Shown here: positions 978 through 18,033 of the stretch, in pieces
Layout of the letters: the number at the start of each line of letters is the position of its first letter
How positions within the stretch are numbered: the first letter of the stretch is position 1
The notes under the pieces: model-generated
Databases searched by the model: none
Told to the model about the DNA's origin: nothing
What the model saw: only the letters and a program-made list of their open reading frames with translations
Source: Gemella haemolysans
Lineage (GTDB): Bacteria > Bacillota > Bacilli > Staphylococcales > Gemellaceae
Length of the DNA stretch: 64,000 nucleotides
Direction of reading: 5' to 3'
Assembly (NCBI RefSeq): GCF_012273215.1
Contig: NZ_CP050965.1
Coordinates: 1,658,541-1,722,540, forward strand
Made by a program: the position numbers and the translations under genes

Positions 978-2506
978 GTTTTATTGGCTCTTTGTCAAAT
1001 TCGGGGCATGGAGAAAAATAGGAAATGAAATCTAGGCAGCATTTTGCTGCTTAGATTTTTTCTTGTTTTCTTTAAGTTTGACATTATTTTTATACTCAGA
1101 AACAAATAATCTAGACATAATTAAAATGCGTAATCTGAAATTACTAAAGCTAGAATATCCATAAGATACTCTCTTTAGTAGTTTTATTTTATTATTAAAT
1201 CCTTCTAATGGACCATTAGAATACTTATATTTAACAGCATTAAGCATATACTCTTTGTGCTTTTTCATAGTATTTATAGCTTTAGATACACCTTTAGATA
1301 ATCCTCTAGTATCCATATCTATATACTTCTCTAATTCTACAGAATCTTTAGCCTTAATAGCTTCTCTTATCTCATGCACTCTCTCATAGCTAGGTGTAAA
1401 TTCATCATCTATAGCTAATATATAATCTAATACTTCTTTTCTAGTTACATAGCGTTTAAAGCTTCTAGAATAGAATGTTTTTGTTGAATTTACTTTATCT
1501 CTATCTTCTAATATTACTTTCCAGAAGTTCTTTAAAATAGTGTAAGTAGAACTTTTTTTATTCTTATATTGGTTCATTAGTTTTATTCTAGCTTTATTTA
1601 ATTCTCTATTAATATTTTGTACCATATGGAATCTATCTATAATTATTTTAGCGTTAGGAAACATCTCTCTAATCATATTCATATAAGGAGGGTAAATATC
1701 TATACAGATTGTTTTTACTTTCTTTCTTACTTTCCTTGGATATCTCATAAAGTACTGTTTTAATATATGTTGAGTTCTTCCATCTACAATATCTATAAAA
1801 TCATGTGTTTTAGCATCTAAGAATACGAAGCTCATTCCATTTTTACTGTCTTTAGTTGACTTTATCTCATCAAAACATAGGTGTTCTGGTAGGTTTGAAT
1901 GAGTCTTAATTTCTACGGCTTCTCTACATGATTTCATTACTCTTACTACTGTAGATACTGATACATTACTTAATTCAGCTATATCTTTAAATGATATTGT
2001 CTTAGAAAGATTCTTCATAATGTGAAATATAAGATTTTTAGATATACTGCAGTGTTTTTGTACAAATAATGTTTCAGCACAAAACTTAGAATTACATTCT
2101 TTACATTTAAAGCGTTGTTTCTTTAATCGTAGATATGTAGGGCATTCTGATATCTTTAATAAAGCTACTTTTAATGGATCTGTGAATCCATTTTTAACTA
2201 TATTATTTCCTTCTTTTATACAACCACAGTTTGTACAACACTTTGGATTGTATGATAAAGTCCCATGAAATACGAATGTATCTTGACCGTCTACATTAAT
2301 TAAATCAAGTTTATCATCCATAGTTATATTTTGGTCTTTTATTAATAGTAAATTTGTGATAAAATTAGACATGACAAATATCCTTTCTTAGTTAATTATT
2401 TTTCTACACTTTAATTATATTGGGTATTTGTCTTTTTGTATATAAAAATTGAAATCCGGGGCTGGAATTTTTCCATGCCCCGGATTTAGTATACAACCGT
2501 TTTATT
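978..2506 (-). mobile_element. intact ISL3-family-like insertion sequence with 8-bp target duplication
   Basis: The element spans 986-2498 (1513 bp). Its left end starts GGCTCTTTGTCAAATTCGGG and its right end, read inward, starts GGTTGTATACTAAATCCGGG. The two ends share GG, AAAT, CGGGGCATGGA and an A-rich run, giving imperfect inverted repeats of about 30 bp. The flanks carry the identical octamer GTTTTATT at 978-985 and 2499-2506, an 8-bp target site duplication as expected for the ISL3 family. It encodes one full-length transposase. The perfect duplication indicates a fairly recent insertion. Confidence 0.92.
1032..2372 (-). CDS. ISL3-family transposase
   Basis: This 446-residue protein is a DDE transposase that mobilises the surrounding element. 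The N-terminal zinc-finger-like region holds paired cysteines (CCTNCGCIKEGN and CKECNSKFCAE). A helix-turn-helix segment follows (FKDIAELSNVSVSTVVRVMK), then the catalytic core with VFLDAKTHDFIDIVDGR, ICIDIYPPYMNMI, IIIDRFHMVQNINRELN and near the end YKYSNGPLEGFNNKIKLLKR, which holds the conserved Glu. The length is normal for ISL3 transposases. AGAAAGGATATTTGTC precedes the ATG. The C-terminal code recurs in the relic at 18.1 kb, so related copies have been active here. Confidence 0.95.
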   Translation of the reverse strand: MSNFITNLLLIKDQNITMDDKLDLINVDGQDTFVFHGTLSYNPKCCTNCGCIKEGNNIVKNGFTDPLKVALLKISECPTYLRLKKQRFKCKECNSKFCAETLFVQKHCSISKNLIFHIMKNLSKTISFKDIAELSNVSVSTVVRVMKSCREAVEIKTHSNLPEHLCFDEIKSTKDSKNGMSFVFLDAKTHDFIDIVDGRTQHILKQYFMRYPRKVRKKVKTICIDIYPPYMNMIREMFPNAKIIIDRFHMVQNINRELNKARIKLMNQYKNKKSSTYTILKNFWKVILEDRDKVNSTKTFYSRSFKRYVTRKEVLDYILAIDDEFTPSYERVHEIREAIKAKDSVELEKYIDMDTRGLSKGVSKAINTMKKHKEYMLNAVKYKYSNGPLEGFNNKIKLLKRVSYGYSSFSNFRLRILIMSRLFVSEYKNNVKLKENKKKSKQQNAA

Positions 2507-2735: not shown

Positions 2736-4790
2736 CTACTTAATATTAAAGTTTTTCAGTACAATACTAAATGTAGTTAAATTATGCAGTAATGCTAGTA
2801 AGTTAGATGGCAATACGTTTATTAGTCCTAGGAATATTAGTGAACTATTGATCGATACCGTACTTTTAACGTTATTACTCATTTGCGCACGTAATTTTTT
2901 AGAAACATCCGATAATAGTAATAACGAATTAAGTGAATCTGATTTTAGAACGACATCACTGATTTGTTTCGAAAGATCAGCACTTTCGCTCATAACGATA
3001 CTTACATCACTTTCTGATAATGCTGCCGAATCATTTAGACCGTCTCCTATCATAAGTACACGACGTCCTTTTTCTTTTTCACTCTTAATGTACTCAAATT
3101 TCGTAACTGGAGTCATACTTGTATATACTTCGTCAAAAGTAACATCATTTAAGATTTTCTTCGTTCTTACTTCGTTATCCCCTGTTAATAAGACAACTTT
3201 TTTACCGTTATTTCTAAGTTCAGTTAATACCTCATTCGCTTCATCTCTTAGCGGTATATCTACACAGAAAATTGAAATCAATTGTCCTTTATACCCTAAG
3301 AATAATAAGTTATACTGTTCTTGTTTTTCAGCAATTATTTGTTTTTGTTCGTCTGTAACAACTACATTTTCATCTTTTAGTAATTGTCTACTTCCAATAA
3401 CAACTTTTTCTCCATCAATATGAGAAACTATACCTTTTGATGCGATGTGATATAACTCTGTATGCATTTCTTCATGCTCAATTCCATCTTCTTCAGCCTT
3501 ACTCACAACAGCACTAGCAATCGGATGATAGATATGTTCTTCTAAGCACGCTCCGATTTTTAATACTTCTTCATAAGAATATCCATAAAATGGTAGCACT
3601 TCTTGAATATATGGTTTAGACACCGTTATAGTTCCTGTTTTATCAAAAACAAATGTATCGATATCCTCATATTTATCAAGAGTTACAGAGTTCTTAACTA
3701 CAATTTTTTTATCGATTAAGTTCTTAATAGTAGTTAGATACGCCACAGGTGTTGATAGTTTCAATGCACATGAATAATCAACTAATAGGAATGAAATTGC
3801 CTTAGCAAATGATCTAGTAAATAAATACGTTAGTCCCATCGCTAAGAAGTTATATTTTACAATACTATCCGCTAATTTTATATATTTGTAGTGATATGTA
3901 TCTTCTCTACTTTCAGAATCTTTCATCAATTGGATAAGGTGATGAATACGACCATTAACCTGTGGGTTTTCGACTCTAATCTTAACTTCACCGTTAACAA
4001 CTATCGTATTAGAATAAACTTTATCACCGATATTTTTGACAATTGGGAAACTTTCTCCTGTTAATGAACTTTCATCAACACTAGCGCCCTCAGTCATCAC
4101 AATACCATCGAATAGAATCTCATTTCCTTCTGAAACTAGTATTACATCATCTTTCCTAACTTCTGAACAAGTTACTTTTCTATTTCCTTCTTCTTCAACA
4201 AGCCATACTTCTTTATCCATAGAAGTCAAACTTTGTTCAAGAACTTTTACAGATTTTTTCTCAGACCAATTGTTAAGTGATTCTCCTAGTTCTAAAATAA
4301 ACATAATAGAACTTGCCGTTTCACGAGCCCCCGTCGCTAATGATACAAGAATTGCCGCGGAGTCAAGTGTTTCCATAGTAACTTGCTTACGTGCTAGTAG
4401 TTTTAATGTGTCTTTCAAATATCCTGAAGCTTTCCACCATGTATGAATCGCTCTTAGTGGAAGTGGTACGAATAATTTCGACATTGCACGCCAAAACATA
4501 GCATCCATTATTATCGAATAAGGACTTTCCTCAGCTTTAGCTACTGGATTCTCATAACAGTTTTTTACTTTTTCTTTATCAATTAATTTAAAGAATTCTT
4601 GTAAACAACTGTTACTTCCTTCTTTAAAAATAACAACAAAAGTGTACTCGTCTTGATAAAAGTCCACTTTTTGTATGTTTTCGATTTTGGCTGCTCGTTT
4701 TTTTAAATATACTTTCACATCTGGTGTTAAGCGAAAATCAGCTCTAACCCTAGCTCTGACACTTGATAGATGTAGTATTTTAAAATCCAT
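2736..4790 (-). CDS. P1B-type heavy-metal-translocating ATPase with atypical metal-site motif
   Basis: This 684-residue membrane pump exports metal cations using ATP. Seen in order are an N-terminal ferredoxin-like segment without a CxxC (HMA_2-like, about residues 1-75), membrane helices, the actuator TGES (near 246), the phosphorylation motif FDKTGTITVSKP (Asp near 384), and the hinge MIGDGLNDSAAL (near 583). The membrane metal site, normally CPC or CPx, reads DYSCALKLSTPVAYLT, so the proline and second cysteine are absent. This variant site makes the substrate uncertain (Mn, Zn, Fe or another metal). The gene starts one base after the stop of the DUF6110-like gene, with GAGGCAAAATAAG before ATG, so the two are co-transcribed. 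Confidence 0.9.
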   Translation of the reverse strand: MDFKILHLSSVRARVRADFRLTPDVKVYLKKRAAKIENIQKVDFYQDEYTFVVIFKEGSNSCLQEFFKLIDKEKVKNCYENPVAKAEESPYSIIMDAMFWRAMSKLFVPLPLRAIHTWWKASGYLKDTLKLLARKQVTMETLDSAAILVSLATGARETASSIMFILELGESLNNWSEKKSVKVLEQSLTSMDKEVWLVEEEGNRKVTCSEVRKDDVILVSEGNEILFDGIVMTEGASVDESSLTGESFPIVKNIGDKVYSNTIVVNGEVKIRVENPQVNGRIHHLIQLMKDSESREDTYHYKYIKLADSIVKYNFLAMGLTYLFTRSFAKAISFLLVDYSCALKLSTPVAYLTTIKNLIDKKIVVKNSVTLDKYEDIDTFVFDKTGTITVSKPYIQEVLPFYGYSYEEVLKIGACLEEHIYHPIASAVVSKAEEDGIEHEEMHTELYHIASKGIVSHIDGEKVVIGSRQLLKDENVVVTDEQKQIIAEKQEQYNLLFLGYKGQLISIFCVDIPLRDEANEVLTELRNNGKKVVLLTGDNEVRTKKILNDVTFDEVYTSMTPVTKFEYIKSEKEKGRRVLMIGDGLNDSAALSESDVSIVMSESADLSKQISDVVLKSDSLNSLLLLSDVSKKLRAQMSNNVKSTVSINSSLIFLGLINVLPSNLLALLHNLTTFSIVLKNFNIK

Positions 4791-4791
4791 C

Positions 4792-5073
4792 TTATTTTGC
4801 CTCTAATTCTTGAAGATTGCTTTCTCTTTTTTCTTTTTCGTATAAGTCTTTAGCATCTGCCACTACATCATCAGCATGTTGCTTGATGTTTGAAACAGTT
4901 CCTTCTACTCCATCTTTTGCTTTATATAATTTTGATAAAACAACTGAGTAACCTTTCTTAGCATCTTTGCTTGATAAAAGTTTAAGACCGAAAGTTCCGA
5001 ATGCTACTCCTCCTGCAAATACCCCTGGTGTTTTAAGTGCTGCTTTAGCAACTTTTAACGCTTTTATTGACAT
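4792..5073 (-). CDS. small DUF6110-like membrane protein, partner of the P-type ATPase
   Basis: This protein has 93 or 94 residues. The ATG at 5073 is chosen because AAGGAGG lies 8 bases upstream; the TTG at 5079 is only two bases from it. A short hydrophobic segment, TPGVFAGGVAFGTFGLKLLS, is followed by a Lys/Ala/Asp/Glu-rich helical tail that looks amphipathic. It sits immediately upstream of the ATPase in one transcript. This layout recalls mycobacterial PacL (DUF1490) proteins, which pair with P1B ATPases and scaffold them. The resemblance is in architecture and position; I claim no sequence homology. The tail lacks an obvious His/Cys metal motif. Confidence 0.75.
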   Translation of the reverse strand: MSIKALKVAKAALKTPGVFAGGVAFGTFGLKLLSSKDAKKGYSVVLSKLYKAKDGVEGTVSNIKQHADDVVADAKDLYEKEKRESNLQELEAK

Positions 5074-7959: not shown

Positions 7960-8248
7960 CAAAATAGAAATTTTGACCATTTTTTCCATTTTGGATTGAT
8001 TTTATGACCTCAAAATGGAAATTTTGACTGTTTTTTCCATTTTGGATTGATTTTATGACCTCAAAATGGAAATTTTGACTGTTTTTTCCATTTTGAATTA
8101 CTTTTCTGATCTCAAAATGGAAATTTTTACTATTTTTTCCATTTTGAATTACTTTTCTGGTCTCAAAATAGAAATTTTGACTGTTTTTTCCATTTTGAAT
8201 TGGATTTTTGACCTCAAAATGGAAATTTTACCTGTTTTTTCCATTTTG
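7960..8248 (+). repeat. six tandem hairpin repeats with exact 51-bp period
   Basis: Six palindromes of 34 bases start at 7960, 8011, 8062, 8113, 8164 and 8215. Each has arms CAAAATGGAAA / TTTCCATTTTG (one-base variants) around a T-rich loop and is separated by 17-base linkers. Linkers 1-2 are identical and linkers 3-4 nearly so. The array ends directly at the TGTTATAAT promoter of the Fic gene. The open frame through copies 3-6 (8066-8260) is a by-product of a period divisible by three: in copies 1-2 the same frame meets TGA. It is not a CRISPR array, because the repeats are palindromic throughout and the linkers are not unique. Confidence 0.92.
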
Positions 8249-8252
8249 AATA

Positions 8253-8261
8253 TGTTATAAT
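8253..8261 (+). promoter_or_regulatory. extended -10 promoter of the Fic gene
   Basis: TGTTATAAT at 8253-8261 immediately follows the last hairpin repeat and lies about 32 bases before the start codon. The sixth hairpin therefore covers the -35 region. Confidence 0.55.
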
Positions 8262-8292
8262 TATTAAAAATATATTAAAGTAGGTGATTTAT

Positions 8293-9507
8293 ATGAATAA
8301 GTATTATCCTCTAGAGAAATTATTTCATATGAATTTAGATATAGAAAATGAATATAACAATAGAATCCATTCTCCTTCTAGTTCTGTTACTTCGCTTAAA
8401 ATCAATCCCTTTATTAAGGGGATAAGAAAACCAGAAGAGTATCCATTATTTATATATAACTCTGCAGAATTGATCTTAATTCTAGAGAAAATTCATACAA
8501 ATAGTGCTGAGATTATTGCGAAACAAAGTATGCTTCCAGAAGCTGCACAAGAAAAGTTCTTTAATTTGTTGCTTATCAACGAACTTCAAAGCACTAATGA
8601 AATCGAAAGTATTCATAGTTCTAAAAAAGAGATTAGCGAAGCACTTTCTAAAAAAGATAGCACTTCTCCTAACTTTAGACGTTTTGCTGGTATGGCTTCA
8701 TTATATTCTTACCTCGACAAAGAAGTACAAATACTTGAACCTAAAGATTTCAGAAAAATTTATGATGTTCTCGTTGGGGATGAGGTTTCAACAGAAAATA
8801 TTTTAGATGGAGAAGTTTTTAGAAAAGGAAGCGTAAGTATCTATGCTGGGAATGATATCATTCACCATGGTTTAGCAACTGAAGATGATATCAACAACGG
8901 ACTGGCTGATTTAATTAGGTTTATGAATTATGACAACTTACCAAAACTATATAAAATTTTTATTGGACACTATTATTTTGAATACATTCATCCATTTTAT
9001 GATGGAAATGGTCGTGTAGGTAGATACTTACTCGCCAAATCTCTTACGAGTGTAGTAGATATATTTACGGCAATTACTCTTTCATACAGTATTAATAGAA
9101 ATAAAAATAAATACTATAAGAGTTTTGAGAAAACATCACACCCTTTAAACAAAGGTGATATGACTCTATTTGTTAAAGAGAACTTAGAGCTTTTAGTTTC
9201 AGGTCAAGAACATATATTATCTTTCCTAACCGAAAATATCGAAAAAATGTTCACAGCAAGAAACTATATTAATGATAATATCGCTGACGATACACTTAAA
9301 AATATACTATTCTTACTTCTACAAAGTCATTTATTTAGTGCTAAAGATGCTTTAATAAGTCATACAGAAGTTTCTAATATTTTAGAAATTTCTACAAAAA
9401 CTCTAAATAAATATTTAGAAGATAATGAAGACAAGATTACAGTAATTAAGAAGAAACCAAAAATATATACGCTTAGTGATGACTTTTTAGCTAAGATATT
9501 TGAATAA
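8293..9507 (+). CDS. Fic-family protein (probable AMP-transferase) with winged-helix-like C-terminus
   Basis: This protein has about 404 residues. The start is placed at the ATG at 8293 because TAGGTGA precedes it at normal spacing; the GTG at 8284 overlaps that site. The catalytic loop HPFYDGNGRVGRYLL (about residue 233) matches HPFx(D/E)GNGRxxR, so the active site looks intact. Upstream, LQSTNEIESIHSS resembles the N-terminal inhibitory helix (S/T)xxxE of self-inhibited Fic proteins, with Ser replacing the usual Gly/Asn after Glu. The last 80 or so residues look like a winged helix (HTEVSNILEISTKTLNKYLE). Fic enzymes usually transfer AMP to protein hydroxyls; the target is unknown. No separate antitoxin gene is adjacent. 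Confidence 0.9.
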   Translation: MNKYYPLEKLFHMNLDIENEYNNRIHSPSSSVTSLKINPFIKGIRKPEEYPLFIYNSAELILILEKIHTNSAEIIAKQSMLPEAAQEKFFNLLLINELQSTNEIESIHSSKKEISEALSKKDSTSPNFRRFAGMASLYSYLDKEVQILEPKDFRKIYDVLVGDEVSTENILDGEVFRKGSVSIYAGNDIIHHGLATEDDINNGLADLIRFMNYDNLPKLYKIFIGHYYFEYIHPFYDGNGRVGRYLLAKSLTSVVDIFTAITLSYSINRNKNKYYKSFEKTSHPLNKGDMTLFVKENLELLVSGQEHILSFLTENIEKMFTARNYINDNIADDTLKNILFLLLQSHLFSAKDALISHTEVSNILEISTKTLNKYLEDNEDKITVIKKKPKIYTLSDDFLAKIFE

Positions 9508-9508
9508 C

Positions 9509-9561
9509 AAAAAAATCTGGGAAACTACGAATCACTTTAGATTCACTTCCCAGATTTTTTA
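9509..9561 (+). terminator. bidirectional terminator after fic
   Basis: AAAAAATCTGGGAA and TTCCCAGATTTTTT form a strong stem with an A-run before and a T-run after, so it can end transcription of fic (+) and of the convergent TPR-like operon (-). Confidence 0.85.
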
Positions 9562-9688
9562 TTTTTATATGTACAAGTACCCCTGCACTGAATTTTTGTT
9601 TTTGTATAACGATCCAGCCAACGAGTTATTGTTTAGCGTGTATATACATGATATCGAAGACAAGTTATTTTTCTTCCTACAAAAACCT

Positions 9689-10720
9689 CTAGTCTTTTTT
9701 AAACTTAACTCCGTTATTTTTTAGATTTTGGATAACTGTAGCACCTATACCACCTAGCTTTTTCAGTTCTTTTTCTGTATAAGATTCAATAATTTCTTTA
9801 TTATACAATTCAGCACCAATAAACTTGTTTAATTGTCTTTCCATACCAGCGAAAATTGGATCTTCTTTCATCATTTCCTTGGAAATATTCAGACGACCTT
9901 CCACTATCAGAATTACTCTTTTTTCAATTTCTTCTTTATAGAATTTTTCTAACAATTCATAATGGTATTTACTAATAAGGTAATCTTTAGCTATATTAGC
10001 TACGAAATGCATTTCGAATACTTCGGGTTTTTGCAAATCTTTTTCATCTTGCAGAGTTCCCTCTATAAAGCTTTCAACTTTCTCAAAACCACCTTTAAAG
10101 ATTATACCAACATATTTATTAAGTTCTTTAAGCTTCGTCATATAATAATGAGCTTCATCAAATTTACCTTGATTTATACTAAAGATACTTAAAAGCAACA
10201 ACGTAGGTTCTGATTCTAGATAATCGAAACGTTTAATATGATTTCTCATCAAGTCATCTCTATTTAGGCGAACATAAACATGTGTCAGTTCATCTGTAAC
10301 CTCAGAAAAATCAGACGGACTAGCCTTTAATAAAAGTTCATACAATTTCGCAGCTTCTTCGTACATACCTGCTTTGACATAATACCCTGCAAGAGCATCC
10401 GCTAATATCATCTCTTCAGTATCTTCATCACTTTCTGAATATAAAATATCCTCTCCAAGCTCAATAGCCATCTCTATACCACTGTGATTTTCCTCATGTA
10501 GTTCTAGTAAAGCATTAACCTTGTCAAAAACACTCATATCACTATCATCAATAGCATCGACAATATCACCAAGAGGACCATCTACATCATAACCATCTTT
10601 TACCATATTATAAATATGTTCAAAAACCTCGATAGCATCTTCTCTATTAGGAAAATTCTTCCCTTCAGTTTCTAAAAATTCTTTAAGCAATAATTCAAAT
10701 TTTTTATCACGTTTTACCAT
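9689..10720 (-). CDS. unknown helical-repeat protein with helix-hairpin-helix-like tail (paralogue 1)
   Basis: This acidic protein of 343 residues is almost wholly helical. TPR-like helix pairs are visible in the middle (ALAGYYVKAGMYEEAAKLYE, YYMTKLKELNK). The end reads LKKLGGIGATVIQNLKNNGV, which resembles a helix-hairpin-helix GxGxxxxxxL element found in nucleic-acid-binding proteins. It overlaps the preceding gene by 7 bases, and the two proteins share the same layout and tail, so they are diverged paralogues acting together. No catalytic residues are recognised. I do not know its function. Confidence 0.75.
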   Translation of the reverse strand: MVKRDKKFELLLKEFLETEGKNFPNREDAIEVFEHIYNMVKDGYDVDGPLGDIVDAIDDSDMSVFDKVNALLELHEENHSGIEMAIELGEDILYSESDEDTEEMILADALAGYYVKAGMYEEAAKLYELLLKASPSDFSEVTDELTHVYVRLNRDDLMRNHIKRFDYLESEPTLLLLSIFSINQGKFDEAHYYMTKLKELNKYVGIIFKGGFEKVESFIEGTLQDEKDLQKPEVFEMHFVANIAKDYLISKYHYELLEKFYKEEIEKRVILIVEGRLNISKEMMKEDPIFAGMERQLNKFIGAELYNKEIIESYTEKELKKLGGIGATVIQNLKNNGVKFKKD

Positions 10721-11868
10721 AAGTCATCCTCCATTAGCTCCATCTGGATATCAAACTCACTATCATCAGCAAACATTACACCATTCATATGTAAGTTCCT
10801 GATTGTTCCCTTACCTAAACCTTTTATTTTCAAAAACTCAGCCTTAGTAATTTCTAAGAAATCTTCTTTTGTTAGTAAAAAGTTCTCGTGCATAATTTTT
10901 AATTCAGTATCTCGGATAGCCATAAACGATCTATCTCGTTTCATATCAGCAACTGTTATTTCCTTACGATCCGCATATTTATCCAAATCATCGCCAATAA
11001 CATATTCACTTTCCCTAACATGCATAAGAAAGTCAAAATAGTACTCTTTACTTAAGAAATAATCGAACTTCATAACAGTATTAAGAGCCTCTAAATACTT
11101 ACAATCATCATCCGTACTAAACTTAATTAACTTAGGATTAGTTATTCTATCTAAAACATCAGAAATATATTTATTAACTTTAATCAATTTACTGAAAAAT
11201 GCAACAGCTTCTTTCTCTTCTCCTTGCATCAAATGGTAAAAAACTTTCGATAACAAAATAACCTCATCATCATTTTTGCCATGTTTATTCGCTAGTTTAT
11301 AGTAACGATTAACCTCTGTAAAATCATTCAATATAAGACTAGCAACAACAAAATTGTGATACATCGGCATTATAACCTCATTGTCCATATCTAAAGCGAA
11401 ATAAAACGGCTGATATGCATTCTGAACTTTATTATATAACTTATTTCCTAAATAAAATTCCGCAAGGTGATGACAGACTCTCAAATGAAGATAGTTAATC
11501 GGAAGTAGTTTACCATCAACAAAACCGTCTTCGAAAGTGTATACTTCTTCTTTTAGTCGTATTAATTCTTGTTCAATTTCATATTCCGTACAATCTTTAC
11601 TAACTATTTCCCAAACCCTAGCATCTACGTTGTACTTAGATAAATCTATAGAATTTTTTACATTAGATGCATATTTAGGATCTTCGAAATTCTCAATAAA
11701 TTCCGCAAAAAGTTTCATCGATTCATTAAAATCAGACTCAATCTCTTTAGAAGAGAACTGTATTTCACCATAACCTTGATTGAGATTAAAATCTCTATAT
11801 TTACGACTTCTTATTCCTGTGTATCCTTTTCTATCAACAGGAAATTTTATAATTTTTTTACTATTCAT
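10714..11868 (-). CDS. unknown helical-repeat protein with helix-hairpin-helix-like tail (paralogue 2)
   Basis: This 384-residue protein is helical and acidic, with TPR-like segments and a final EFLKIKGLGKGTIRNLHMNG. That last part is a clearer helix-hairpin-helix-like element than in its paralogue. The N-terminus is basic (KFPVDRKGYTGIRSRKYRDF). The start at 11868 follows AAAGGGAGGGAACAGGC. It is the first gene of a two-gene operon with translational coupling to the second. Function unknown; a nucleic-acid-associated scaffold is conceivable from the tail alone. Confidence 0.75.
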   Translation of the reverse strand: MNSKKIIKFPVDRKGYTGIRSRKYRDFNLNQGYGEIQFSSKEIESDFNESMKLFAEFIENFEDPKYASNVKNSIDLSKYNVDARVWEIVSKDCTEYEIEQELIRLKEEVYTFEDGFVDGKLLPINYLHLRVCHHLAEFYLGNKLYNKVQNAYQPFYFALDMDNEVIMPMYHNFVVASLILNDFTEVNRYYKLANKHGKNDDEVILLSKVFYHLMQGEEKEAVAFFSKLIKVNKYISDVLDRITNPKLIKFSTDDDCKYLEALNTVMKFDYFLSKEYYFDFLMHVRESEYVIGDDLDKYADRKEITVADMKRDRSFMAIRDTELKIMHENFLLTKEDFLEITKAEFLKIKGLGKGTIRNLHMNGVMFADDSEFDIQMELMEDDLW

Positions 11869-12300
11869 GCCTGTTCCCTCCCTTTGCTGTTTTGAGTAAT
11901 TCTATAAAGTTTACAGCGATTTCAACAATCGTCTTTTGTAAGAAAATCTTTATAAAATTCACTACCTCTCCAACTTTATTCTACATCAAAACACAATATA
12001 ATACAAACATAACAGTTAAGAAATAATTAAATTAATAAATATAAAATAATTTATTACAATTAACATAAAAAGAATCTCATCTCATATTTAACAAGATAAA
12101 ATTCTTTATGACTTTACGTAATAACCTAAAAATAGATACAACCCTTAGGATACCACGCACACTCTTTACTCTATTTCGTTCAACAATACACCTTTTCTTG
12201 TTATGAATTAATTCGAAGAGATATTCCTCTAATTCTCTATCCATTTACATAATCTTAAAAATGCAATTTTAATCTCAACATAAATAAGAAAACCTTTTCT
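11869..12300. other. intergenic region before the toxin-antitoxin array
   Basis: No gene was seen. From about 12189 the sequence repeats the boundary of the downstream units (ACACCTTTTCTTGTTATGAA, then AGATATTCCTCTAATTCTCT). It is thus the tail of an older, decayed unit of the toxin-antitoxin array followed by the upstream flank of the intact one. Confidence 0.6.
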
Positions 12301-12312
12301 AAGATGATTTAT

Positions 12313-12323
12313 GGTGATATAAT
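12313..12323 (+). promoter_or_regulatory. promoter of the type I toxin mRNA
   Basis: TGATATAAT (an extended -10 with TATAAT at 12318-12323) lies about 37 bases before the toxin ATG. The second unit has the counterpart TGCTATAAT near 12763, so the promoter is conserved between units. Confidence 0.6.
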
Positions 12324-12359
12324 AAAAGTAGGCTACTAGCTCCAAAAGGAGGTGGTTGC

Positions 12360-12467
12360 ATGTACGATATAATCGTCCAAATTCTTGTTGGACTATTTGT
12401 GGGAATTGTTCTCCTATTTATAGAATATTTTTATTTCCTAAATGATAAAAACAACAAGAGGAGGTAG
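12360..12467 (+). CDS. Fst-like type I toxin peptide, 35 residues
   Basis: The ORF is below common size cut-offs. It starts at an ATG directly behind AAAAGGAGGTGG and encodes MYDIIVQILVGLFVGIVLLF, then IEYFYFLNDKNNKRR. This is one membrane helix with a charged tail, the layout of Fst/Ldr-type membrane toxins. The mRNA 5' end GGCTACTAGCTCC can pair both with the RBS (GGAGG) and with GGAGGTAGCC at the stop codon, which would hide the start. ATAATCGTCCAA inside the ORF recurs downstream at 12598 in the antitoxin, as the direct repeats do in the pAD1 par system. The toxicity is inferred. Confidence 0.82.
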   Translation: MYDIIVQILVGLFVGIVLLFIEYFYFLNDKNNKRR

Positions 12468-12545
12468 CCCTATTTAGGCACGACGTACATGTTATTCACT
12501 CATGTATGAATATTTATTCTCATACAAAGTGGTATGTTAATACAT

Positions 12546-12617
12546 ATAAAAAAGCAACTGAACGGCATTTCAGTTGCTTTTCGTGGTCTCATGTGAATAT
12601 AATCGTCCAATTCACTT
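12546..12617 (-). ncRNA. antitoxin RNA of the Fst-like system (par RNA II type)
   Basis: A minus-strand promoter with TTGACA (12648-12653) and TAGAAT (12624-12629) would give an RNA of about 70 nt. It would start near 12617 and end at the GCAACTGAA/TTCAGTTGC hairpin followed by T6. It is complementary to the toxin mRNA at the shared terminator and, through the repeat GAATATAATCGTCCAATTC, to the early toxin coding region. This is the geometry of par antitoxin RNAs. Its ends are predictions. Confidence 0.75.
12553..12582. terminator. bidirectional terminator shared by toxin mRNA and antitoxin RNA
   Basis: The stem GCAACTGAA / TTCAGTTGC (12554-12577) has A6 on the left and TTTT on the right, so it ends both convergent RNAs. 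The twin is at 13051-13074. Confidence 0.85.
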
Positions 12618-12623
12618 ATTTAT

Positions 12624-12653
12624 ATTCTAACATACACCTTTTCTAGTTGTCAA
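12624..12653 (-). promoter_or_regulatory. antitoxin RNA promoter, unit 1
   Basis: A perfect TTGACA lies 18 bases from TAGAAT, with TGT before the -10. A stronger promoter than the toxin's is expected for this kind of system. Confidence 0.7.
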
Positions 12654-12830
12654 TTAATCCGAAAAGATATTCCTCTAATTCTCTATCCATTTACATAATC
12701 TTAAAAAGATAATTTTCCTTATAATTATAAATAGAGATCCTTTTCTGATATGACTTCTAGTGCTATAATAATAAAGATAGGCTACTAGCTCATAAAGTAG
12801 CCTTTTACAAAGTAAACAAAATTAAATTTA

Positions 12831-12952
12831 GACGCAGTGGCTTATTGATATCTAAATTCGCTTTGCAAAAGCTCTTTAGACATCTAATAACCTGTGCGGG
12901 GGCAACTCGACAAAATCGATTTCTTCGAAATCACGATTTTTGAGTTGCTCCC
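12831..12952 (+). repeat. dispersed two-hairpin repeat, copy 2 (in place of a toxin ORF)
   Basis: Starting GACGCAGTGGCTTATTGATA and ending TTTTTGAGTTGCTCCC, it matches the copy at 2582-2703 over its full length. Changes in the second stem are compensated (GGGGGCAACTC / GAGTTGCTCCC against GGGGGTGACTC / GAGTCACTCCC), so the fold is kept. Confidence 0.85.
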
Positions 12953-13045
12953 AAGAAAAAGTAGCCCTATTTAGGCACGATGTACATGTTATTCACTCAT
13001 GTATAAATATTTATTCTCATACAAAGTGGTATGTTAATACATATA

Positions 13046-13114
13046 AAAAAGCAACTGAATCGCCTTTCAGTTGCTTTTCGTGGTTGCATGTGAATATAAT
13101 CGTCCAATTCACTT
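13046..13114 (-). ncRNA. orphan antitoxin RNA, unit 2
   Basis: TTGACA (13145-13150) and TAAAAT (13121-13126), 18 bases apart, would drive an RNA from about 13114 to the GCAACTGAA/TTCAGTTGC hairpin at 13051-13074. The sequence is close to the unit 1 antitoxin, including GAATATAATCGTCCAATTC. It has no cognate toxin frame in its own unit but could cross-act on the unit 1 mRNA. Confidence 0.7.
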
Positions 13115-13274
13115 TCCTATATTTTACCACATACCTTTTCTTATTGTCAATTAATTCAAAGGTCAGATATAGTGATATATTTCATAAAGGATAAATTCCT
13201 CTAAACTATGAATCGCTACACTCATAGGAAGGAATTACTTATATAAACATTACAACTTAAATTTTTTCAAAAAA

Positions 13275-13396
13275 CGAGAGACTCATAAATCGTGATTTTG
13301 ATTATCGAATCATCACCACAAAATTCATCATATATCTAGAAATCTCTTATGAAGAAAATTTAGTTATCAATAAACCACTTCACCTACGCATTTTCA
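13275..13396 (-). repeat. dispersed two-hairpin repeat, diverged inverted copy
   Basis: On the plus strand it reads as the reverse complement of the 2582-2703 element with many changes: AAATCGTGATTTT, then ATATATCTAGAAATCT, then ATCAATAAACCACT. It is the oldest-looking of the four copies. Confidence 0.6.
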
Positions 13397-13440
13397 TAAA
13401 CGTCTAGGATTTTTTGAATACACCTAAAAACATATTACAA

Positions 13441-13752
13441 TTAGACTTCCCCATACTTAAAATCATTGTCCTTTTCAAATTCCTTGAATGTAGGAAGTTT
13501 TTTATCTTTTTCTGAAATAATAGCTTTTGATAAATCGATCTGCCAATCAATTCCTAGCACTTCATCATCGAATGCAATTCCTGCATCTGCTTCTACATTA
13601 TAATAATTATCACACTTATACATGAAGTTAACATTTGGTGTTAATGTCGCAAAACCATGAGCAAATCCTCTAGGAACTAAAAGTTGCCTTTTGTTATGAC
13701 CTGAGAGAATAAAACTCTCCCACTGTCCATATGTTGGACTACCTTTTCTCTA
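13441..13752 (-). pseudogene. rmlC: C-terminal fragment of dTDP-4-dehydrorhamnose 3,5-epimerase
   Basis: Reading from about 13746, the frame gives GSPTYGQWESFILSGHNKRQ, LLVPRGFAHGFATLTPNVNF and MYKCDNYYNVEADAGIAFDD, ending KDNDFKYGEV. This is the C-terminal half of RmlC, including the PRGFAHGF motif. An in-frame stop lies just upstream and the N-terminal half is gone; about 100 of the usual 190 or so residues remain. No other rhamnose genes are in the window. It is a relic of an earlier polysaccharide gene set. Confidence 0.85.
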
Positions 13753-13806
13753 CTTAAAACATTATCACTTTTCATTCACAAAAGTCATAAACTATAGTTA
13801 TAATAC

Positions 13807-13835
13807 TTGACATCTAAGAATTAAAGATATACAAT
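13807..13835 (+). promoter_or_regulatory. strong promoter ahead of the Abi-like gene
   Basis: TTGACA (13807-13812), a spacer of exactly 17 bases and TACAAT (13830-13835) form a near-consensus promoter. Transcription would start near 13842 and meet a terminator-like hairpin within 40 bases. Confidence 0.75.
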
Positions 13836-13841
13836 TTGATT

Positions 13842-13887
13842 ATAAGATTAGGTCAGGAAGCATACGGTGTCCTGACCATTTTTTTTG
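13842..13887 (+). ncRNA. short hairpin RNA upstream of the AbiD/F-like gene
   Basis: Between the promoter and the Abi-like start codon lies a perfect stem GGTCAGGA (13851-13858) / TCCTGACC (13870-13877), closed by a loop containing AGCATACGGTG and followed by eight T. The result would be an RNA of about 45 nt, or a leader attenuator. Structured RNAs have been reported upstream of abiF-type genes, and this position fits. I cannot match the known motif without a covariance model. Confidence 0.5.
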
Positions 13888-13898
13888 GAGAATAAATT

Positions 13899-14423
13899 AT
13901 GAAAGATTATAAAACACTTAACCAACAATTAAAAATACTAAAAAAAAGGGGGGCTCGTTGTCCCCACAAATGGACAACCAAAGAAATTTTTAGAACAAGA
14001 AGACTATTATAATGTATTAAACGATTACAAAGGTCTGTTTCTAGAAAAAGGTGCAGATGATACTCCTCAAATTCCAAAAAAATATTTACCTAATACTCAT
14101 TTTAATGAATTGCAATCATTATTTTTATTTGATAGAGAACTAAGAATACTGTTCTTAAAATATATTCTAATTTTTGAAAATTCATTTAAGACTGTACTAT
14201 CACATGAGTTTTCAAAAAATATCCAAAACCAAATTCATATTTAGAAATACAAAATTACAACATTAATAGTCCAAAAAAAGTATTACAACAAATATCAATC
14301 CTAACAAAAACAATTCATGATAAGGTTGATAAGAACGGCACAGTAAAACATTATATAGAAGATTATGGTTATGTTCCTTTATTCTTTATTACATTTATTT
14401 TTAAAAAAATCTGTCGTGGATAA
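13899..14423 (+). pseudogene. AbiD/AbiF-like (Abi_2 family) abortive infection gene, frameshifted
   Basis: The start ATG at 13899 follows TTTGGAGAATAAATT. The frame MKDYKTLNQQLKILKKRG breaks at the A7G6 run near 13961-13973; with one G fewer it continues LVVPTNGQPKKFLEQEDYYN. FDRELRILFLKYILIFENSF and TVLSHEFSK follow, typical of Abi_2 proteins. A second shift at AAAAAA near 14217 restores YPKPNSYLEIQNYNINSPKK. The end (near VPLFFITFIFKK) is shorter than in full Abi proteins. Both lesions are at homopolymers, so phase variation or sequencing error is possible, but the short C-terminus favours a pseudogene. Confidence 0.8.
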
Positions 14424-14919
14424 GTTGTTAATAATTTCTATTTATTCGACTGCCTACGGAAAAATAAATTGACTCTACAGCTTTATTATAAACTTTTATT
14501 CGACCACCCATTCGAACGCATTGTAGCTCTTTATTACTTTTTCTTTTAAAACTTTTAACAATCAGCTATTTATTTCAATCAATTATCTAACCCTGTAAAC
14601 AACTATAATTATTAAATAGTCAACTTTATTTAAAACACTAGATTATGTTTACACAAAAATCTCGATACTGCAAAAAGCTATACTACTTAATATAGCATAG
14701 CTTCCTCCTAATTTTCAAAATCAATCGAATTTGATACAGAGCCTAAAAAATTAGTCTCAAGTTAAATTCAAGTTTTCTATTTGAATCGGAATTACTTTAG
14801 GAATTTACGGATAAATAAAATATACATCTTTATTTTGAATTTTTTTTAACATATTTCGATTGACTTTTACATTTCGAATATGAACTAGCTTATTATAATA
14901 AATTCTATACTATTATTTA
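14424..14919. other. 496-bp noncoding region with degenerate short repeats
   Basis: From 14443 to about 14530 there are about 17-base degenerate units (TATTCGACTGCCTACGG, AAATTGACTCTACAGCT, TTATTCGACCACCCATT) like those at 42338-42532. A terminator-like hairpin lies at 14676-14702. No gene was seen. Confidence 0.5.
14674..14702 (-). terminator. terminator-like hairpin downstream of the SIR2 gene
   Basis: On the minus strand AGCTATGCTA and TAGTATAGCT pair and are followed by TTTTT. It lies about 215 bases beyond the stop codon of the SIR2-domain gene. Confidence 0.55.
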
Positions 14920-16422
14920 TCATTCACCATTGAGAAATTTATTTTCTTTAATTTTTTTCAATAAATTAGGAATTTCTGAAAAATTATCTATCCAAATAAT
15001 ATTTAACCCTAATTCTGCAAAAAAAGATTCTTGCAGTACTTCATATATTCTTTCAAATTTAACTATTTTATCATCTCTTACAAAATTTTTATCATCATTA
15101 AACTCAGTTCTTTTTAGTATAACATAATGTTTCAATCTTTCTTCTATATCTAAACTCTTTTGAGCTGCGATTTCCAATAATCTTCTTAAGTTTGGATCTG
15201 TCATTGATAGTCCTATAAATATACATGTATTATTAATCAAATAATTAAGTTGAATCATATTGGCCCAATTATAGGGTTCTAAAAATAATTTATGATACCC
15301 TTCCTCAGAAAATACTAATAAAGACTTCTCCAAATCCTTATAGTTTTGTTTATCCTTAGGTAAAAATCCATGTACATGATAAATTCCAACCTCTTCATTA
15401 TCAGGAATCATTCCTTCTGCATAAATTGAACGATACTTAACCCTTAACTCTTCTAAATTCCTCTCAATTAAATCATCAAAATTATAGTTAATAACTGCTT
15501 GAACTCCAACTTTTCCACGTTTTGAAATGCACAATTGACAGATTTCATTTATTAAACTAGAGGTAGAATGAGAATTTTCATATAAAATATCACTGACTGT
15601 ATCAGTAAACCTATTTCCAAATCCACTTCTTATCAATCTTGTCTGAAATAATTGTGAACTACTATTCTTCTCCATTAGTTTCTCTACTATTTTGTCTTTC
15701 TTATCAGAAGGAATATCAACATTATTTTCTCTGAGTTTCCTTTCAATTAATGTCACAAATAATTCAGAAATAAGGTTATTCCATTTAGGCATACCGGCAT
15801 CATCTGATACTCCTGCCCCAAGAAATAACACAATATTATCCCTACTGTATTCTTGACTAAGTTGATTAACATATTCATCTCTCTTTTGCTTATTATTAGC
15901 ACTATCCCTATACAATCCAGTTTTTACAGTATCATTAAGTAACAAATTATTTATATTAGTATATGTTTCAAAAAAGAAGTCTTCATTTTTTCCGCACATA
16001 TCAACAACATCATCAATGTCCCAAATTATTATTCTAAAATTTAAATGTTCTGTTTGGCTATAGATTTTTTGTTTGATTTTATCGGGAATTTCATTAACCA
16101 TCACCAATAATAACGTGCTTATATTATCTTCATTTACTACTATCCGTCCTATAATATTGTATAATTCTCTAATTATCAGACCTGTATTTCTATGTATTTT
16201 TAATTCCACATCTACTTTTCCACTGACAGTATCAAATCCCTCCGGCAGTACTGCATCAAAAGTTATTCTTTGATAACTGTCTCTTGAGAGTATCATTTCT
16301 TTATTCTGTCTTTTTAAGTAGTGTTGAAATACTGTAAGTATTAACTTCTCTATTGCCATATTCGAATATCTAATATTATATTCAGGTTTTAATAATTCTA
16401 ATATACTTTTCTTTATATCCAT
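14920..16422 (-). CDS. nuclease-like plus SIR2-domain protein (probable NADase-type defence effector)
   Basis: This 500-residue protein has two regions. Residues 1-170 look like a PD-(D/E)xK restriction fold: FDAVLPEGFD, then GKVDVELKIH (D56, E73, K75), and a strand IIIWDIDDVVDM. From about 195 a SIR2_2-type NAD-binding domain begins: NIVLFLGAGVSDDAGMPKWN, later NYNFDDLIERN, GIYHVHGFLP, and CIFIGLSMTDPNLRRLLEIA. These motifs fit SIR2 enzymes that deplete NAD in anti-phage systems. The start follows GGAGATTAAAGT. No HerA, TIR or Argonaute partner is adjacent; the next gene upstream encodes a membrane HEPN-like protein. The defence role is inferred from family and context. Confidence 0.85.
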   Translation of the reverse strand: MDIKKSILELLKPEYNIRYSNMAIEKLILTVFQHYLKRQNKEMILSRDSYQRITFDAVLPEGFDTVSGKVDVELKIHRNTGLIIRELYNIIGRIVVNEDNISTLLLVMVNEIPDKIKQKIYSQTEHLNFRIIIWDIDDVVDMCGKNEDFFFETYTNINNLLLNDTVKTGLYRDSANNKQKRDEYVNQLSQEYSRDNIVLFLGAGVSDDAGMPKWNNLISELFVTLIERKLRENNVDIPSDKKDKIVEKLMEKNSSSQLFQTRLIRSGFGNRFTDTVSDILYENSHSTSSLINEICQLCISKRGKVGVQAVINYNFDDLIERNLEELRVKYRSIYAEGMIPDNEEVGIYHVHGFLPKDKQNYKDLEKSLLVFSEEGYHKLFLEPYNWANMIQLNYLINNTCIFIGLSMTDPNLRRLLEIAAQKSLDIEERLKHYVILKRTEFNDDKNFVRDDKIVKFERIYEVLQESFFAELGLNIIWIDNFSEIPNLLKKIKENKFLNGE

Positions 16423-16972
16423 ACTTTAATCTCCATAATAAATTATTAATATTTTAACTTTAAATCGAAACCGCTTTCTATATTTCTTTTATAAATTTTC
16501 TTTTTTTACATGTAATCATATAACTATATTTTTACGTTTTTTAATCTATAATATATTTACTTTATTATACTACTTATCAATTTATTTCATAATCTCCAAC
16601 ATTTAACATATTTCACAAAATACCCTGATCTAATAGCAAATTCAATCACTATCCTTCCTGAAAATTAACTAGAATTATTATTAGAACACTAGAATAAACA
16701 TAAGTTATCGACAAAAAATTAAATCATTTATCTATCCTTAGAAAAAAGTAATTAGAAATTATTTCATTGTCATTACTAGAAGTGGGAGTCCCCCTTCAAA
16801 TATCATTTGCCAGAACAATCTTCAGTATTTAGCGATGAAGCAACCTATTCAATATCTGATAGGGTGTTTCATCACATCTATATCCTTATTTTGAGGTAAT
16901 TCTTATTATAGGTTTTTAATAAACTATTCATTTTTATATTAATATTTGACATTAAATTTTTAGTATTTTTTC
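16423..16972. other. 550-bp intergenic region with a long palindrome
   Basis: It separates the SIR2 and HEPN-like genes. A hairpin with 15-base arms, GATGAAGCAACCTAT / ATAGGGTGTTTCATC (two mismatches), lies at 16834-16873 without a T tract. The rest is AT-rich with no supported gene. Confidence 0.5.
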
Positions 16973-17827
16973 TTACAGCAACTTTTCTAATTCTTCATTT
17001 ATTTCTTTTGCCAAATAGTACACCTTCTCATCCATAATCATATCTTGACCATGAACTAAATAATTCCTATATCTTCTAAGAACATTTATTTTTTCAAACA
17101 ATTTTGCATCTATTTTCCCTTCGTATCGTAATATTTTTAAGTTTTGATACATATTTGCATATTTGCCATCTATTTTTACTGAAGAACTTACAAGGTTCGA
17201 TATACTACTTTCTATACTATTATAAGTTTTCAAAAAATCTTCTAGACTTACTTTGTCACTATTATTTTGTTCAGAAAAACTATCCGTTTTCTCTTCTAGT
17301 TTTTCCTCTAACTGTCTCTTCCCAATATAACTTTCTTTTTGAATTTTTTCAGGATCAATAATTTTTTTTACAAACAAAATTATCTCCACTATTGAAAAGA
17401 AAGTAATAACGAGACTGTTGTCAAAAACAAAAATTGAAATAAAGTTATTTGCACTCAAACACATATTTATTATGCATAGGAAGATACTCACACAGGTTAA
17501 ACTCCCAGTAAAAAGAATTTTTAATTTATAGTTAGCTTTCAAATCAGCTACTATATCAATTAATGATTCGTCTTCTTCAACATCATTTTTTAATTTTCCA
17601 TCAAGAAAAATATATCCAGTAATAGATAAGCCAAATAAAGTAGCTACCACTTGAGATAAAGTAGAGGAAACATATAATACTCTGTTTTCATTAAGTATTA
17701 TTAACGAATTAACACTAAAACAACTAATAAGACCTTCGATAATTACAAAAAATATAATGAATATACGAATATTTTTATTCTTTAATATTGAAAATAAATT
17801 ACTTCTACTCAAAATATCACCACTCAT
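16973..17827 (-). CDS. membrane protein with C-terminal HEPN-like motif
   Basis: This protein has about 284 residues. The start is set at the ATG at 17827 behind GGGGGAAT rather than the upstream ATG at 17860. Four hydrophobic segments are visible: IRIFIIFFVIIEGLISCFSV, ATLFGLSITGYIFLDG, ILFTGSLTCVSIFLCIINMC and LVITFFSIVEIILFV. A cytoplasmic helical domain follows. Near its end lies LRRYRNYLVHGQD, where R-N-Y-L-V-H gives the Rx4H motif of HEPN ribonucleases. Membrane-tethered HEPN proteins occur among toxin and defence effectors. The motif is short, so the assignment is tentative. Its neighbours (SIR2, Abi-like) support a defence context. Confidence 0.65.
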   Translation of the reverse strand: MSGDILSRSNLFSILKNKNIRIFIIFFVIIEGLISCFSVNSLIILNENRVLYVSSTLSQVVATLFGLSITGYIFLDGKLKNDVEEDESLIDIVADLKANYKLKILFTGSLTCVSIFLCIINMCLSANNFISIFVFDNSLVITFFSIVEIILFVKKIIDPEKIQKESYIGKRQLEEKLEEKTDSFSEQNNSDKVSLEDFLKTYNSIESSISNLVSSSVKIDGKYANMYQNLKILRYEGKIDAKLFEKINVLRRYRNYLVHGQDMIMDEKVYYLAKEINEELEKLL

Positions 17828-18033
17828 ATTATTCCCCCAAAACAAAACTATAATCGACATTAGTTATATTATCTTTTATTATCATAATAATTTTATTTTT
17901 TATCATATATTAATCGCCCCTTCATTGCAGTTACTTTATTTACCTATATTTAATAATTATAGCAAAATAGTTTTTAATCTACAATAAATTCATTAAATAA
18001 TTATGATCTATTAAGGTTAAATTCAAATTATTA
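17828..18033. other. AT-rich intergenic region
   Basis: About 200 bases of very AT-rich sequence upstream of the HEPN-like gene lead into an IS relic that fills most of the gap to 18337. No gene was seen. Confidence 0.4.

What the first reader, a model, noticed from the sequence alone, without database searches (positions are those of the whole stretch)
12189..13150. Tandem Fst-like type I toxin-antitoxin array with one unit reduced to an orphan antitoxin RNA
A 35-residue membrane-peptide ORF with a perfect RBS sits opposite a predicted antisense RNA with its own promoter, a shared bidirectional terminator and a direct repeat (ATAATCGTCCAA) inside the toxin ORF, matching the par (RNA I/RNA II) design. 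The next unit, about 446 bases on, has the same toxin promoter, terminator and antitoxin, but the toxin ORF is gone and a dispersed hairpin repeat stands in its place. A third boundary scrap at 12189 shows the array was once longer. An antitoxin kept without its toxin could silence the neighbour, as an anti-addiction module.
Basis: partly seen in the sequence, partly recalled or inferred. Interest (0 to 1): 0.75.

Follow-up and report, generated by a model that had tools for sequence, protein, structure and literature searches.

The report
Gemella toxin array with leftover antitoxin
This stretch of a Gemella chromosome holds a tiny predicted toxin gene controlled by an opposing small RNA, next to a second copy that has lost its toxin but kept its RNA; the system looks like a distant cousin of a known family, and the leftover RNA could still bind the neighbouring toxin's message.

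Summary
Unit 1 (12318-12653) has the anatomy of a chromosomal par/Fst-type type I toxin-antitoxin locus: a 35-aa ORF of a family under purifying selection, convergent promoters, a shared hairpin, and two direct repeats (DRs) that covary between toxin and antitoxin. The peptides fail the curated Fst model but match Fst peptides by profile comparison better than all 200 shuffles: a divergent subfamily, found in 4 of 157 genomes of the order, all of one genus. Unit 2 is an antitoxin whose toxin ORF was replaced by a dispersed repeat. A second orphan with the identical junction lies 85 kb away, at a site without it in three relatives. The two orphans carry the DR types of the two resident toxins. 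Orphan 2 pairs with toxin 1's start region better than the cognate RNA (-43.1 against -37.0 kcal/mol), but its terminator loop does not match. An anti-addiction role is possible, not shown: the loop mismatch, possible gene conversion, and an orphan in a relative without a matching toxin speak against it. No expression data exist. Decay by toxin-first loss is a serious rival.

The parts
12179..12222 (.). scrap of an older antitoxin promoter region (unit 0), -35 box disrupted
12318..12323 (+). toxin promoter -10 (TATAAT, preceded by TG)
   Evidence: printed for 10 toxin units; not reported by the promoter scan
12331..12336 (+). 5' arm (GGCTAC) of the long-range upstream helix of the toxin mRNA
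   Evidence: RNAalifold consensus; not in the single-sequence fold of unit 1
12340..12351 (+). 5' stem-loop CTCC-AAAA-GGAG that sequesters the Shine-Dalgarno sequence
   Evidence: CTCC/GGAG and CCC/GGG variants across units
12352..12363 (+). DRa copy in the toxin mRNA (GTGGTTGCATGT)
12360..12467 (+). 35-aa predicted membrane toxin (type A)
   Evidence: pooled pS 0.13 against pN 0.019 over four pairs
12367..12380 (+). DRb copy inside the toxin ORF (ATATAATCGTCCAA)
12464..12469 (+). 3' arm (GTAGCC) of the upstream helix, overlapping the stop codon
12549..12582 (.). shared terminator hairpin of unit 1, loop CGGCAT
12546..12617 (-). predicted antitoxin RNA II of unit 1 (ends inferred)
12624..12653 (-). 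antitoxin promoter of unit 1, TTGACA-18-TAGAAT with TG
12764..12769 (+). retained toxin promoter -10 of unit 2 (TATAAT)
12780..12802 (+). toxin leader remnant of unit 2; GGCTACT and AAGTAGCC could form a local hairpin (read by eye)
12803..12952 (.). dispersed hairpin repeat (left-truncated; core 12829-12952) in place of the toxin ORF
12953..12964 (+). last codons and stop of the lost toxin, right after the repeat; same junction as in the second orphan
13046..13079 (.). terminator hairpin of unit 2, loop TCGCCT
13043..13114 (-). predicted orphan antitoxin RNA (ends inferred); DRa 13080-13091 identical to toxin 1, DRb 13094-13107
13121..13150 (-). promoter of the orphan antitoxin, TTGACA-18-TAAAAT with TG

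Best explanation
This is a chromosomal array of divergent Fst/par-type type I toxin-antitoxin units. In unit 1 the toxin mRNA folds so that its ribosome-binding site is hidden. A roughly 70-nt antisense RNA from the opposite strand pairs with the mRNA at the shared terminator hairpin and at two direct repeats that cover the ribosome-binding site and start codon, and so blocks synthesis of a 35-residue membrane peptide. Unit 2 lost its toxin ORF to a dispersed repeat but kept promoter, direct repeats and terminator of the antitoxin. Its RNA, if made, can pair with the neighbour's toxin mRNA through the direct repeats, though not through the terminator loop. Shown from sequence: architecture, coding selection on the toxin family, covariation, remote similarity to Fst, one shared junction in two orphans. 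Inferred: transcription, toxicity, and pairing in the cell. Whether the orphan really silences toxin 1 I put at about 0.4.
For: Ten full-length toxin ORFs and 15 antitoxin/terminator units in 4 genomes. Purifying selection: pS 0.13 against pN 0.019, p 8.5e-5, four pairs pooled. DR pairing energies are block-diagonal: each of 10 toxins has its best energy with its own type, -33 to -43 kcal/mol, against -7 to -31 with other types. The consensus fold of 10 mRNAs has the upstream helix, the SD-hiding hairpin and the terminator. Profile-profile match to 11 Fst peptides scores 33.07; 0 of 200 segment-preserving column shuffles reach it, maximum 20.2. Orphan 2 against toxin 1: -43.1 kcal/mol, cognate -37.0.
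Against: No transcript or toxicity data. No Fst hit among the Pfam matches listed. NCBIfam Fst is not passed: 4 of 9 members match, best E 0.057, and two other models of short proteins match better, also below cut-off (SA1362 family 0.00072; CLC_0170 family 0.0033); I did not run the profile comparison against those families. The PXXXG motif and the conserved W are absent. In single-sequence folds the upstream helix forms in 7 of 10 mRNAs but not in unit 1, and the SD hairpin in 9 of 10 (read by eye). The plus-strand terminator has a short U-run.
Confidence: 0.82

Rival explanations
1. Unit 2 is a neutral relic. Toxin-first loss is the harmless order of decay in any toxin-antitoxin unit, so arrays collect antitoxins without toxins that have no function and will erode.
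For: Several decay stages exist: the scrap at 12179, a promoterless antitoxin and a 16-codon toxin stub in G005, and a type C orphan in G003, where no type C toxin was found. W2 and W1 differ at 2 of 77 positions after the toxin, so gene conversion could explain the matching repeats. An intact pair shows a similar pattern of conservation (L020 against G4_B 1/64 and 14/131, p 0.02). Unit 2 itself has 3 changes in 64 functional sites, not clearly fewer than the 5.7 that the age of its repeat would predict.
Against: Functional sites of the orphans are better kept than spacers: L021 1/64 against 41/131, p 1.7e-7; G003 orphan 0/63 against 24/113, p 1.3e-5; W2 3/64 against 21/134, p 0.03. Repeats in both orphans differ from consensus at 11 of 124 positions, more than each of the 28 other copies compared (1 to 10); at that rate 64 sites would take 5.7 changes, and L021 has 1 (P 0.02).
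Confidence: 0.42
2. The orphans are selected anti-addiction RNAs: each keeps the direct-repeat type of one resident toxin and restrains it in trans, making its unit less addictive.
For: W2 and L021 share the right junction exactly, a similar left truncation and two repeat variants otherwise seen in 1 of 28 copies each, yet one carries type A and the other type B repeats, the two resident toxin types. Orphan pairing at the DRs equals or beats the cognate RNA. In S. aureus the 5' part of SprA2AS suffices to bind its target and the 3' part has a minor effect (PMC6393315, passages).
Against: Terminator loops do not match: W1 toxin loop with own RNA -12.1, with W2 -3.2; L020 with own -13.8, with L021 +0.7 kcal/mol. 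In par of pAD1 that loop starts the interaction (PMC7472228, passages). The G003 orphan has no resident target found. SprA1AS and SprA2AS do not cross-regulate. A review calls anti-addiction by toxin-antitoxin systems rather modest in effect (PMC10305079, passages).
Confidence: 0.38
3. The retained toxin promoter of unit 2 makes a toxin-less RNA that carries the matching terminator loop and titrates the orphan antitoxin, so unit 2 is a closed, self-silenced pair or a sponge.
For: Toxin promoter -10 and leader are kept in unit 2 and the terminator is shared.
Against: In the sister orphan L021 the toxin promoter has decayed while the antitoxin promoter is kept (read by eye).
Confidence: 0.12
4. 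The small ORF is not translated and the array is a set of structured intergenic repeats.
For: No Pfam or NCBIfam family above cut-off.
Against: Coding selection, RBS, covariation of DRs with the start codon region, profile similarity to Fst.
Confidence: 0.04

Closest known systems
par (RNA I/RNA II, Fst) of Enterococcus faecalis pAD1 and the chromosomal Fst family
   Same: Convergent RNAs, shared terminator hairpin, DRa/DRb over SD and start codon, 5' stem-loop hiding the SD, upstream helix, small membrane peptide (33 aa there, 32-35 aa here) with charged tail (PMC7472228, passages).
   Different: Peptide below the NCBIfam Fst cut-off; no PXXXG motif and no conserved W; tandem array with orphan antitoxins.
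SprA1/SprA1AS and SprA2/SprA2AS of Staphylococcus aureus
   Same: Related type I pairs in one genome with antitoxins specific to their own toxin (PMC6393315, passages).
   Different: No toxin-less antitoxin appears in the passages I read; specificity there was shown by experiment, here only predicted.
zorO-orzO / zorP-orzP of E. coli O157:H7
   Same: Duplicated type I pair with insulation between copies set by a few nucleotides (PMC3919570, passages).
   Different: The sRNA gene is divergent from the toxin gene and pairs in its 5' UTR; that the toxin is unrelated is recalled, not tested.
Orphan type II antitoxins with proposed cross-regulation (Lacticaseibacillus Phd/YefM)
   Same: Antitoxin kept without a toxin and proposed to act on relatives (PMC8003834, passages).
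   Different: Protein antitoxins; here the antitoxin is RNA.

Membership tests
Fst/par type I toxin-antitoxin | convergent promoters for mRNA and antisense RNA | tested here: met
   antisense TTGACA-18-TAGAAT found by scan; toxin -10 TATAAT seen in the printed upstream sequences, not by the scan
Fst/par type I toxin-antitoxin | shared bidirectional intrinsic terminator | tested here: inconclusive
   hairpin in all 15 units, which were recognised by that hairpin; minus-strand terminator clear, plus-strand U-run short and not flagged
Fst/par type I toxin-antitoxin | direct repeats DRa and DRb giving toxin/antitoxin complementarity at SD and start codon | tested here: met
   type-specific covariation across 10 toxins and 14 antitoxins
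Fst/par type I toxin-antitoxin | 5' stem-loop hiding the SD and 5' upstream helix | tested here: met
   RNAalifold consensus of 10 mRNAs; in single folds SD hairpin 9 of 10, upstream helix 7 of 10, not in unit 1
Fst/par type I toxin-antitoxin | U-turn (YUNR) motif in a loop | not tested
   loops listed were not scored for it; the review says not all homologues have one
Fst/par type I toxin-antitoxin | toxin recognised by the curated Fst model NF033608 | tested here: not met
   4 of 9 members weak, best E 0.057; 0 of 15 family genomes over cut-off, 121 of 157 order genomes over it
Fst/par type I toxin-antitoxin | remote similarity of the peptide to Fst | tested here: met
   hhalign probability 94.9, score 33.07 over 34 columns; 0 of 200 shuffles reach it; other short membrane families not compared this way
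Fst/par type I toxin-antitoxin | PXXXG motif and conserved tryptophan in the peptide | tested here: not met
   absent in all 10 peptides. Among 11 Fst peptides compared, W is in all but the proline before the glycine in 2
Fst/par type I toxin-antitoxin | toxicity relieved by the antisense RNA | not testable with these tools
   needs experiment

The most novel reading that the evidence does not exclude
Each unit of the array carries a self-complementary 'barcode', the terminator loop. It can change freely because both RNAs read the same DNA, and it has diversified so fast that sister units no longer recognise one another. Against that insulation, toxin-less antitoxins were copied to a new site and re-specified through the direct repeats to each resident toxin, serving as trans-acting anti-addiction RNAs.
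Probability: 0.17. Interest if true: 0.75.

Novelty: new variant of a known kind. Interest (0 to 1): 0.5.

Why it matters
It places a divergent Fst-like toxin family in Gemella, where the curated Fst model called none in the genomes searched. It offers a natural set in which two recognition elements of a type I antitoxin (direct repeats and terminator loop) point in opposite directions, so their importance can be separated by experiment. It also makes testable whether RNA antitoxins, like protein antitoxins, can be kept as anti-addiction genes.

Tried and rejected
Rfam: 0 matches at gathering score over the whole window. With a loose threshold only sub-threshold hits; the best, S35 (35.6 bits against 69), is to the dispersed repeat, and ncr1015 (31.2 against 60) covers the orphan antitoxin. 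Pfam and NCBIfam scans of the peptides gave nothing over cut-off. Blastn of 12160-13200 in plasmids and phages: no match; viral contigs: no relative; PDB by sequence: none. A tree of 30 repeat copies did not group the two orphan repeats; their common origin rests on the exact right junction, the left truncation (weaker, since copy L078 starts near the same place) and two rare variants. I first took the orphan in G004 (L047 near 4680-4850) as a further case, but it abuts a run of N whose two sides overlap in sequence, so its promoter is unseen and it may be an assembly effect; I left it out of the selection tests. The promoterless G005 antitoxin was also left out of those tests and. The weak profile hits outside the genus (5 of 157 genomes): in G035 the reading is an Fst-like peptide below the Fst cut-off; those in G027 and G028 lie inside longer ORFs; G119 and G152 were read and not pursued. 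Three further repeat copies whose match ran past the repeat end (L172-L174) showed no antitoxin motif.

Loop variability: the 15 units were found with a pattern that fixes the two stem types, so the constancy of the stem is partly built in. Loop changes 17/30 against synonymous 11/83, p 8e-6 (five pairs for loops, four for synonymous sites), against the promoter spacer 22/89, p 0.003, but against the region upstream of the promoter 52/139, p 0.065. Faster-than-neutral change is suggested, not proven, and the pairs may not be strict orthologues.

Full report
What is there. The window lies in a 2.08-Mb single-contig genome. Relatives with the same toxins include contigs titled Gemella haemolysans DNF01167 and DP3_5B; that the window's own genome is Gemella is inferred from these, since their contig lengths agree with G004 and G005, which the kinship column places in the same genus. 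At 12360-12467 a 35-codon ORF follows AAGGAGG. Downstream stands a perfect 13-bp hairpin (12550-12581), then copies of two elements from the toxin start region (DRa, DRb), then a minus-strand promoter TTGACA-18-TAGAAT. 497 bp on, the same hairpin, repeats and promoter recur at 90% identity without the ORF.

Is it a real toxin-antitoxin unit? A search of the own genome found a second complete unit at C1:1454530 (79% peptide identity) and a second antitoxin without toxin at C1:1756233. Over the family, ten toxin ORFs occur in four genomes (G000, G003, G004, G005); one of them, in G004, has ATC in place of the start codon. A profile search of 157 genomes of the order found no other full-length relative: 9 genomes matched at E 0.01 or better, 5 of them only by weak, partial hits. 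Four orthologue-like pairs give pS 0.13 and pN 0.019, p 8.5e-5, so the ORF is coding. I recognised 15 antitoxin/terminator units in the same four genomes. With window 8001-18000 as query, G003 and G005 align on both sides of the array (9689-12121 and 13446-13748; 8687-12101 and 13041-13749), so there the array sits at the same place; in G004 the fetched stretch matches only from 12179 to 13272, its left flank not at all.

How it should work. The consensus fold of ten toxin mRNAs gives a GGCUAC/GUAGCC helix that joins the 5' end to the region of the stop codon, a hairpin that hides the Shine-Dalgarno sequence, and the terminator; folded singly, the helix is seen in 7 of 10 (not in unit 1) and the hairpin in 9 of 10. 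These are features that the review PMC7472228 gives for par of pAD1 (passages read). Duplex energies between toxin start regions and antitoxin 5' regions are block-diagonal by type (A, B, C, D1, D2): each of 10 toxins pairs best with its own type (14 of the 15 antitoxins were used, the promoterless G005 one left out). Between D1 and D2 the separation is smaller (-30.8 against -33.8 for D1 toxins). This covariation is the best evidence that the direct repeats pair.

Family. The peptide is not recognised by the NCBIfam Fst model (4 of 9 members match, best E 0.057; 0 of 15 family genomes over the cut-off), which is over the cut-off in 121 of 157 genomes of the order. Two other NCBIfam models fit some members better, also below their cut-offs (SA1362 0.00072, CLC_0170 0.0033). 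Profile-profile comparison with 11 Fst peptides gives probability 94.9 and score 33.07; 0 of 200 column shuffles that keep the N-terminal, membrane and C-terminal segments reach it, maximum 20.2. I did not make the same comparison with the two other families. I take the Gemella peptides as divergent Fst relatives, with the curated cut-off, the PXXXG motif and the tryptophan not met.

The orphan. In unit 2 the toxin leader breaks off after GGCTACTAGCTCATAAAGTAGCC, a left-truncated copy of a dispersed repeat follows (at least 40 places in the genome), and directly after the repeat's CTCCC stand what look like the last codons of a toxin, AAGAAAAAGTAG (compare). The second orphan has the same arrangement. 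The pattern CTCCCAAGAANAAGTAG matches exactly at these two places only in nine genomes of the genus; 21 further matches have 1 or 2 mismatches. Both repeats share two variants found in 1 of 28 other copies each, though a tree of the copies does not group them. So the two orphans probably descend from one event. The second orphan sits in an intergenic site that lacks the unit in G003, G004 and G005. In G003 and G004 that site holds about 35 other bases with CACTGCGTC or a near copy, which resembles one end of the repeat, so loss there is not excluded; gain in this lineage is the simpler reading.

Can the orphan act on the neighbour? At the direct repeats, yes: toxin 1 with orphan 2 gives -43.1, with its own RNA -37.0 kcal/mol; toxin B with the second orphan -34.8, equal to the cognate. 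At the terminator loop, no: -3.2 against -12.1, and +0.7 against -13.8 kcal/mol. By cofolding of whole RNAs, toxin 1 binds orphan 2 as well as its own RNA (-21.4 and -21.6), and toxin B binds the second orphan less well than its own (-16.0 and -23.5). In par of pAD1 the loop starts the contact; in S. [quoted passage not shown] Which rule holds in Gemella decides the question.

Is the orphan kept by selection? Sites that matter (stem, DRs, promoter hexamers) against spacers: second orphan 1/64 and 41/131 (p 1.7e-7), G003 orphan 0/63 and 24/113 (p 1.3e-5), unit 2 3/64 and 21/134 (p 0.03). An intact pair shows the same trend (1/64 and 14/131, p 0.02), and part of the divergence may predate the loss of the toxin, so this is support, not proof. 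Against selection for silencing a resident toxin: the G003 orphan is type C, and no type C toxin was found in G003; unit 2 is so close to unit 1 just after the toxin (2 of 77) that gene conversion may have made them match.

Terminator loops. Among 15 units 14 loops are distinct (the search pattern fixed the stem types, so their constancy is partly built in). In five between-genome pairs the loop differs at 17 of 30 positions, the stretch between toxin and terminator at 17 of 316. Of 25 fetched Fst loci, 17 showed a hairpin; one unrelated A+T hairpin was dropped, and the other 16 have 10 distinct loops. Since both RNAs read the same DNA, a changed loop stays complementary in its own unit and loses its sisters. 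That fits insulation between copies; hairpin mutability is an alternative that I did not test.

In print. Searches for Gemella with type I toxin-antitoxin (1 paper, seen as a listing, not on this subject by title), with Fst toxin (0), and Gemella haemolysans with small RNA and toxin-antitoxin (0) found no description of this locus. on orphan or anti-addiction antitoxins with antisense RNA gave 2 and 8 papers; I saw titles and starts of abstracts, which name no orphan type I RNA antitoxin, and passages of one of them (PMC10305079). Searches were seen as listings only, apart from the papers cited above. The library lacks most subscription papers, so this is weak evidence of novelty.

Verdict. 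By sequence a genuine, divergent Fst/par-like array with an orphan antitoxin of unusual history. The anti-addiction role is open.

Noticed in passing
window 12803-12952; L052-L081: Dispersed intergenic repeat, core 124 bp, at least 40 places in the genome, mostly with a longer left end beginning near GGGGCTGACCC; weakly resembles Rfam S35 (Staphylococcus sRNA 35, below cut-off). In unit 2 its hairpin stem carries paired changes on both sides (TGACTC/GAGTCA to CAACTC/GAGTTG).
   Followed up: partly
L050 3560-3630 and 3421-3500 (G005): A toxin stub of 16 codons and a promoterless antitoxin, further decay stages of the same array.
   Followed up: partly
window 13441-13623 (-): 60-aa frame matching the C-terminal part of RmlC-like epimerases between the array and the following region.
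   Followed up: no
window 14920-16422 (-) and 16973-17860 (-): SIR2-domain protein resembling ThsA/Dsr1 defence proteins and a second protein with a weak HepT-like C-terminus; possible defence genes.
   Followed up: no
window 8284-9507 (+): Fic-domain protein, similar to SoFic.
   Followed up: no
window 1032-2372 (-) and 57211-57687 (-): ISL3-family and IS200-like transposases.
   Followed up: no
window 43684-52632 (-) and 61193-63982 (-): Very long, repeat-rich reading frames with cell-wall-anchor-like ends (read from the ORF list only).
   Followed up: no
L048 (G004 C12), about 2700-2820 of the reverse strand: What looks like a reversed copy of the dispersed repeat lies just upstream of the complete type B unit in G004 (by eye).
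   Followed up: no
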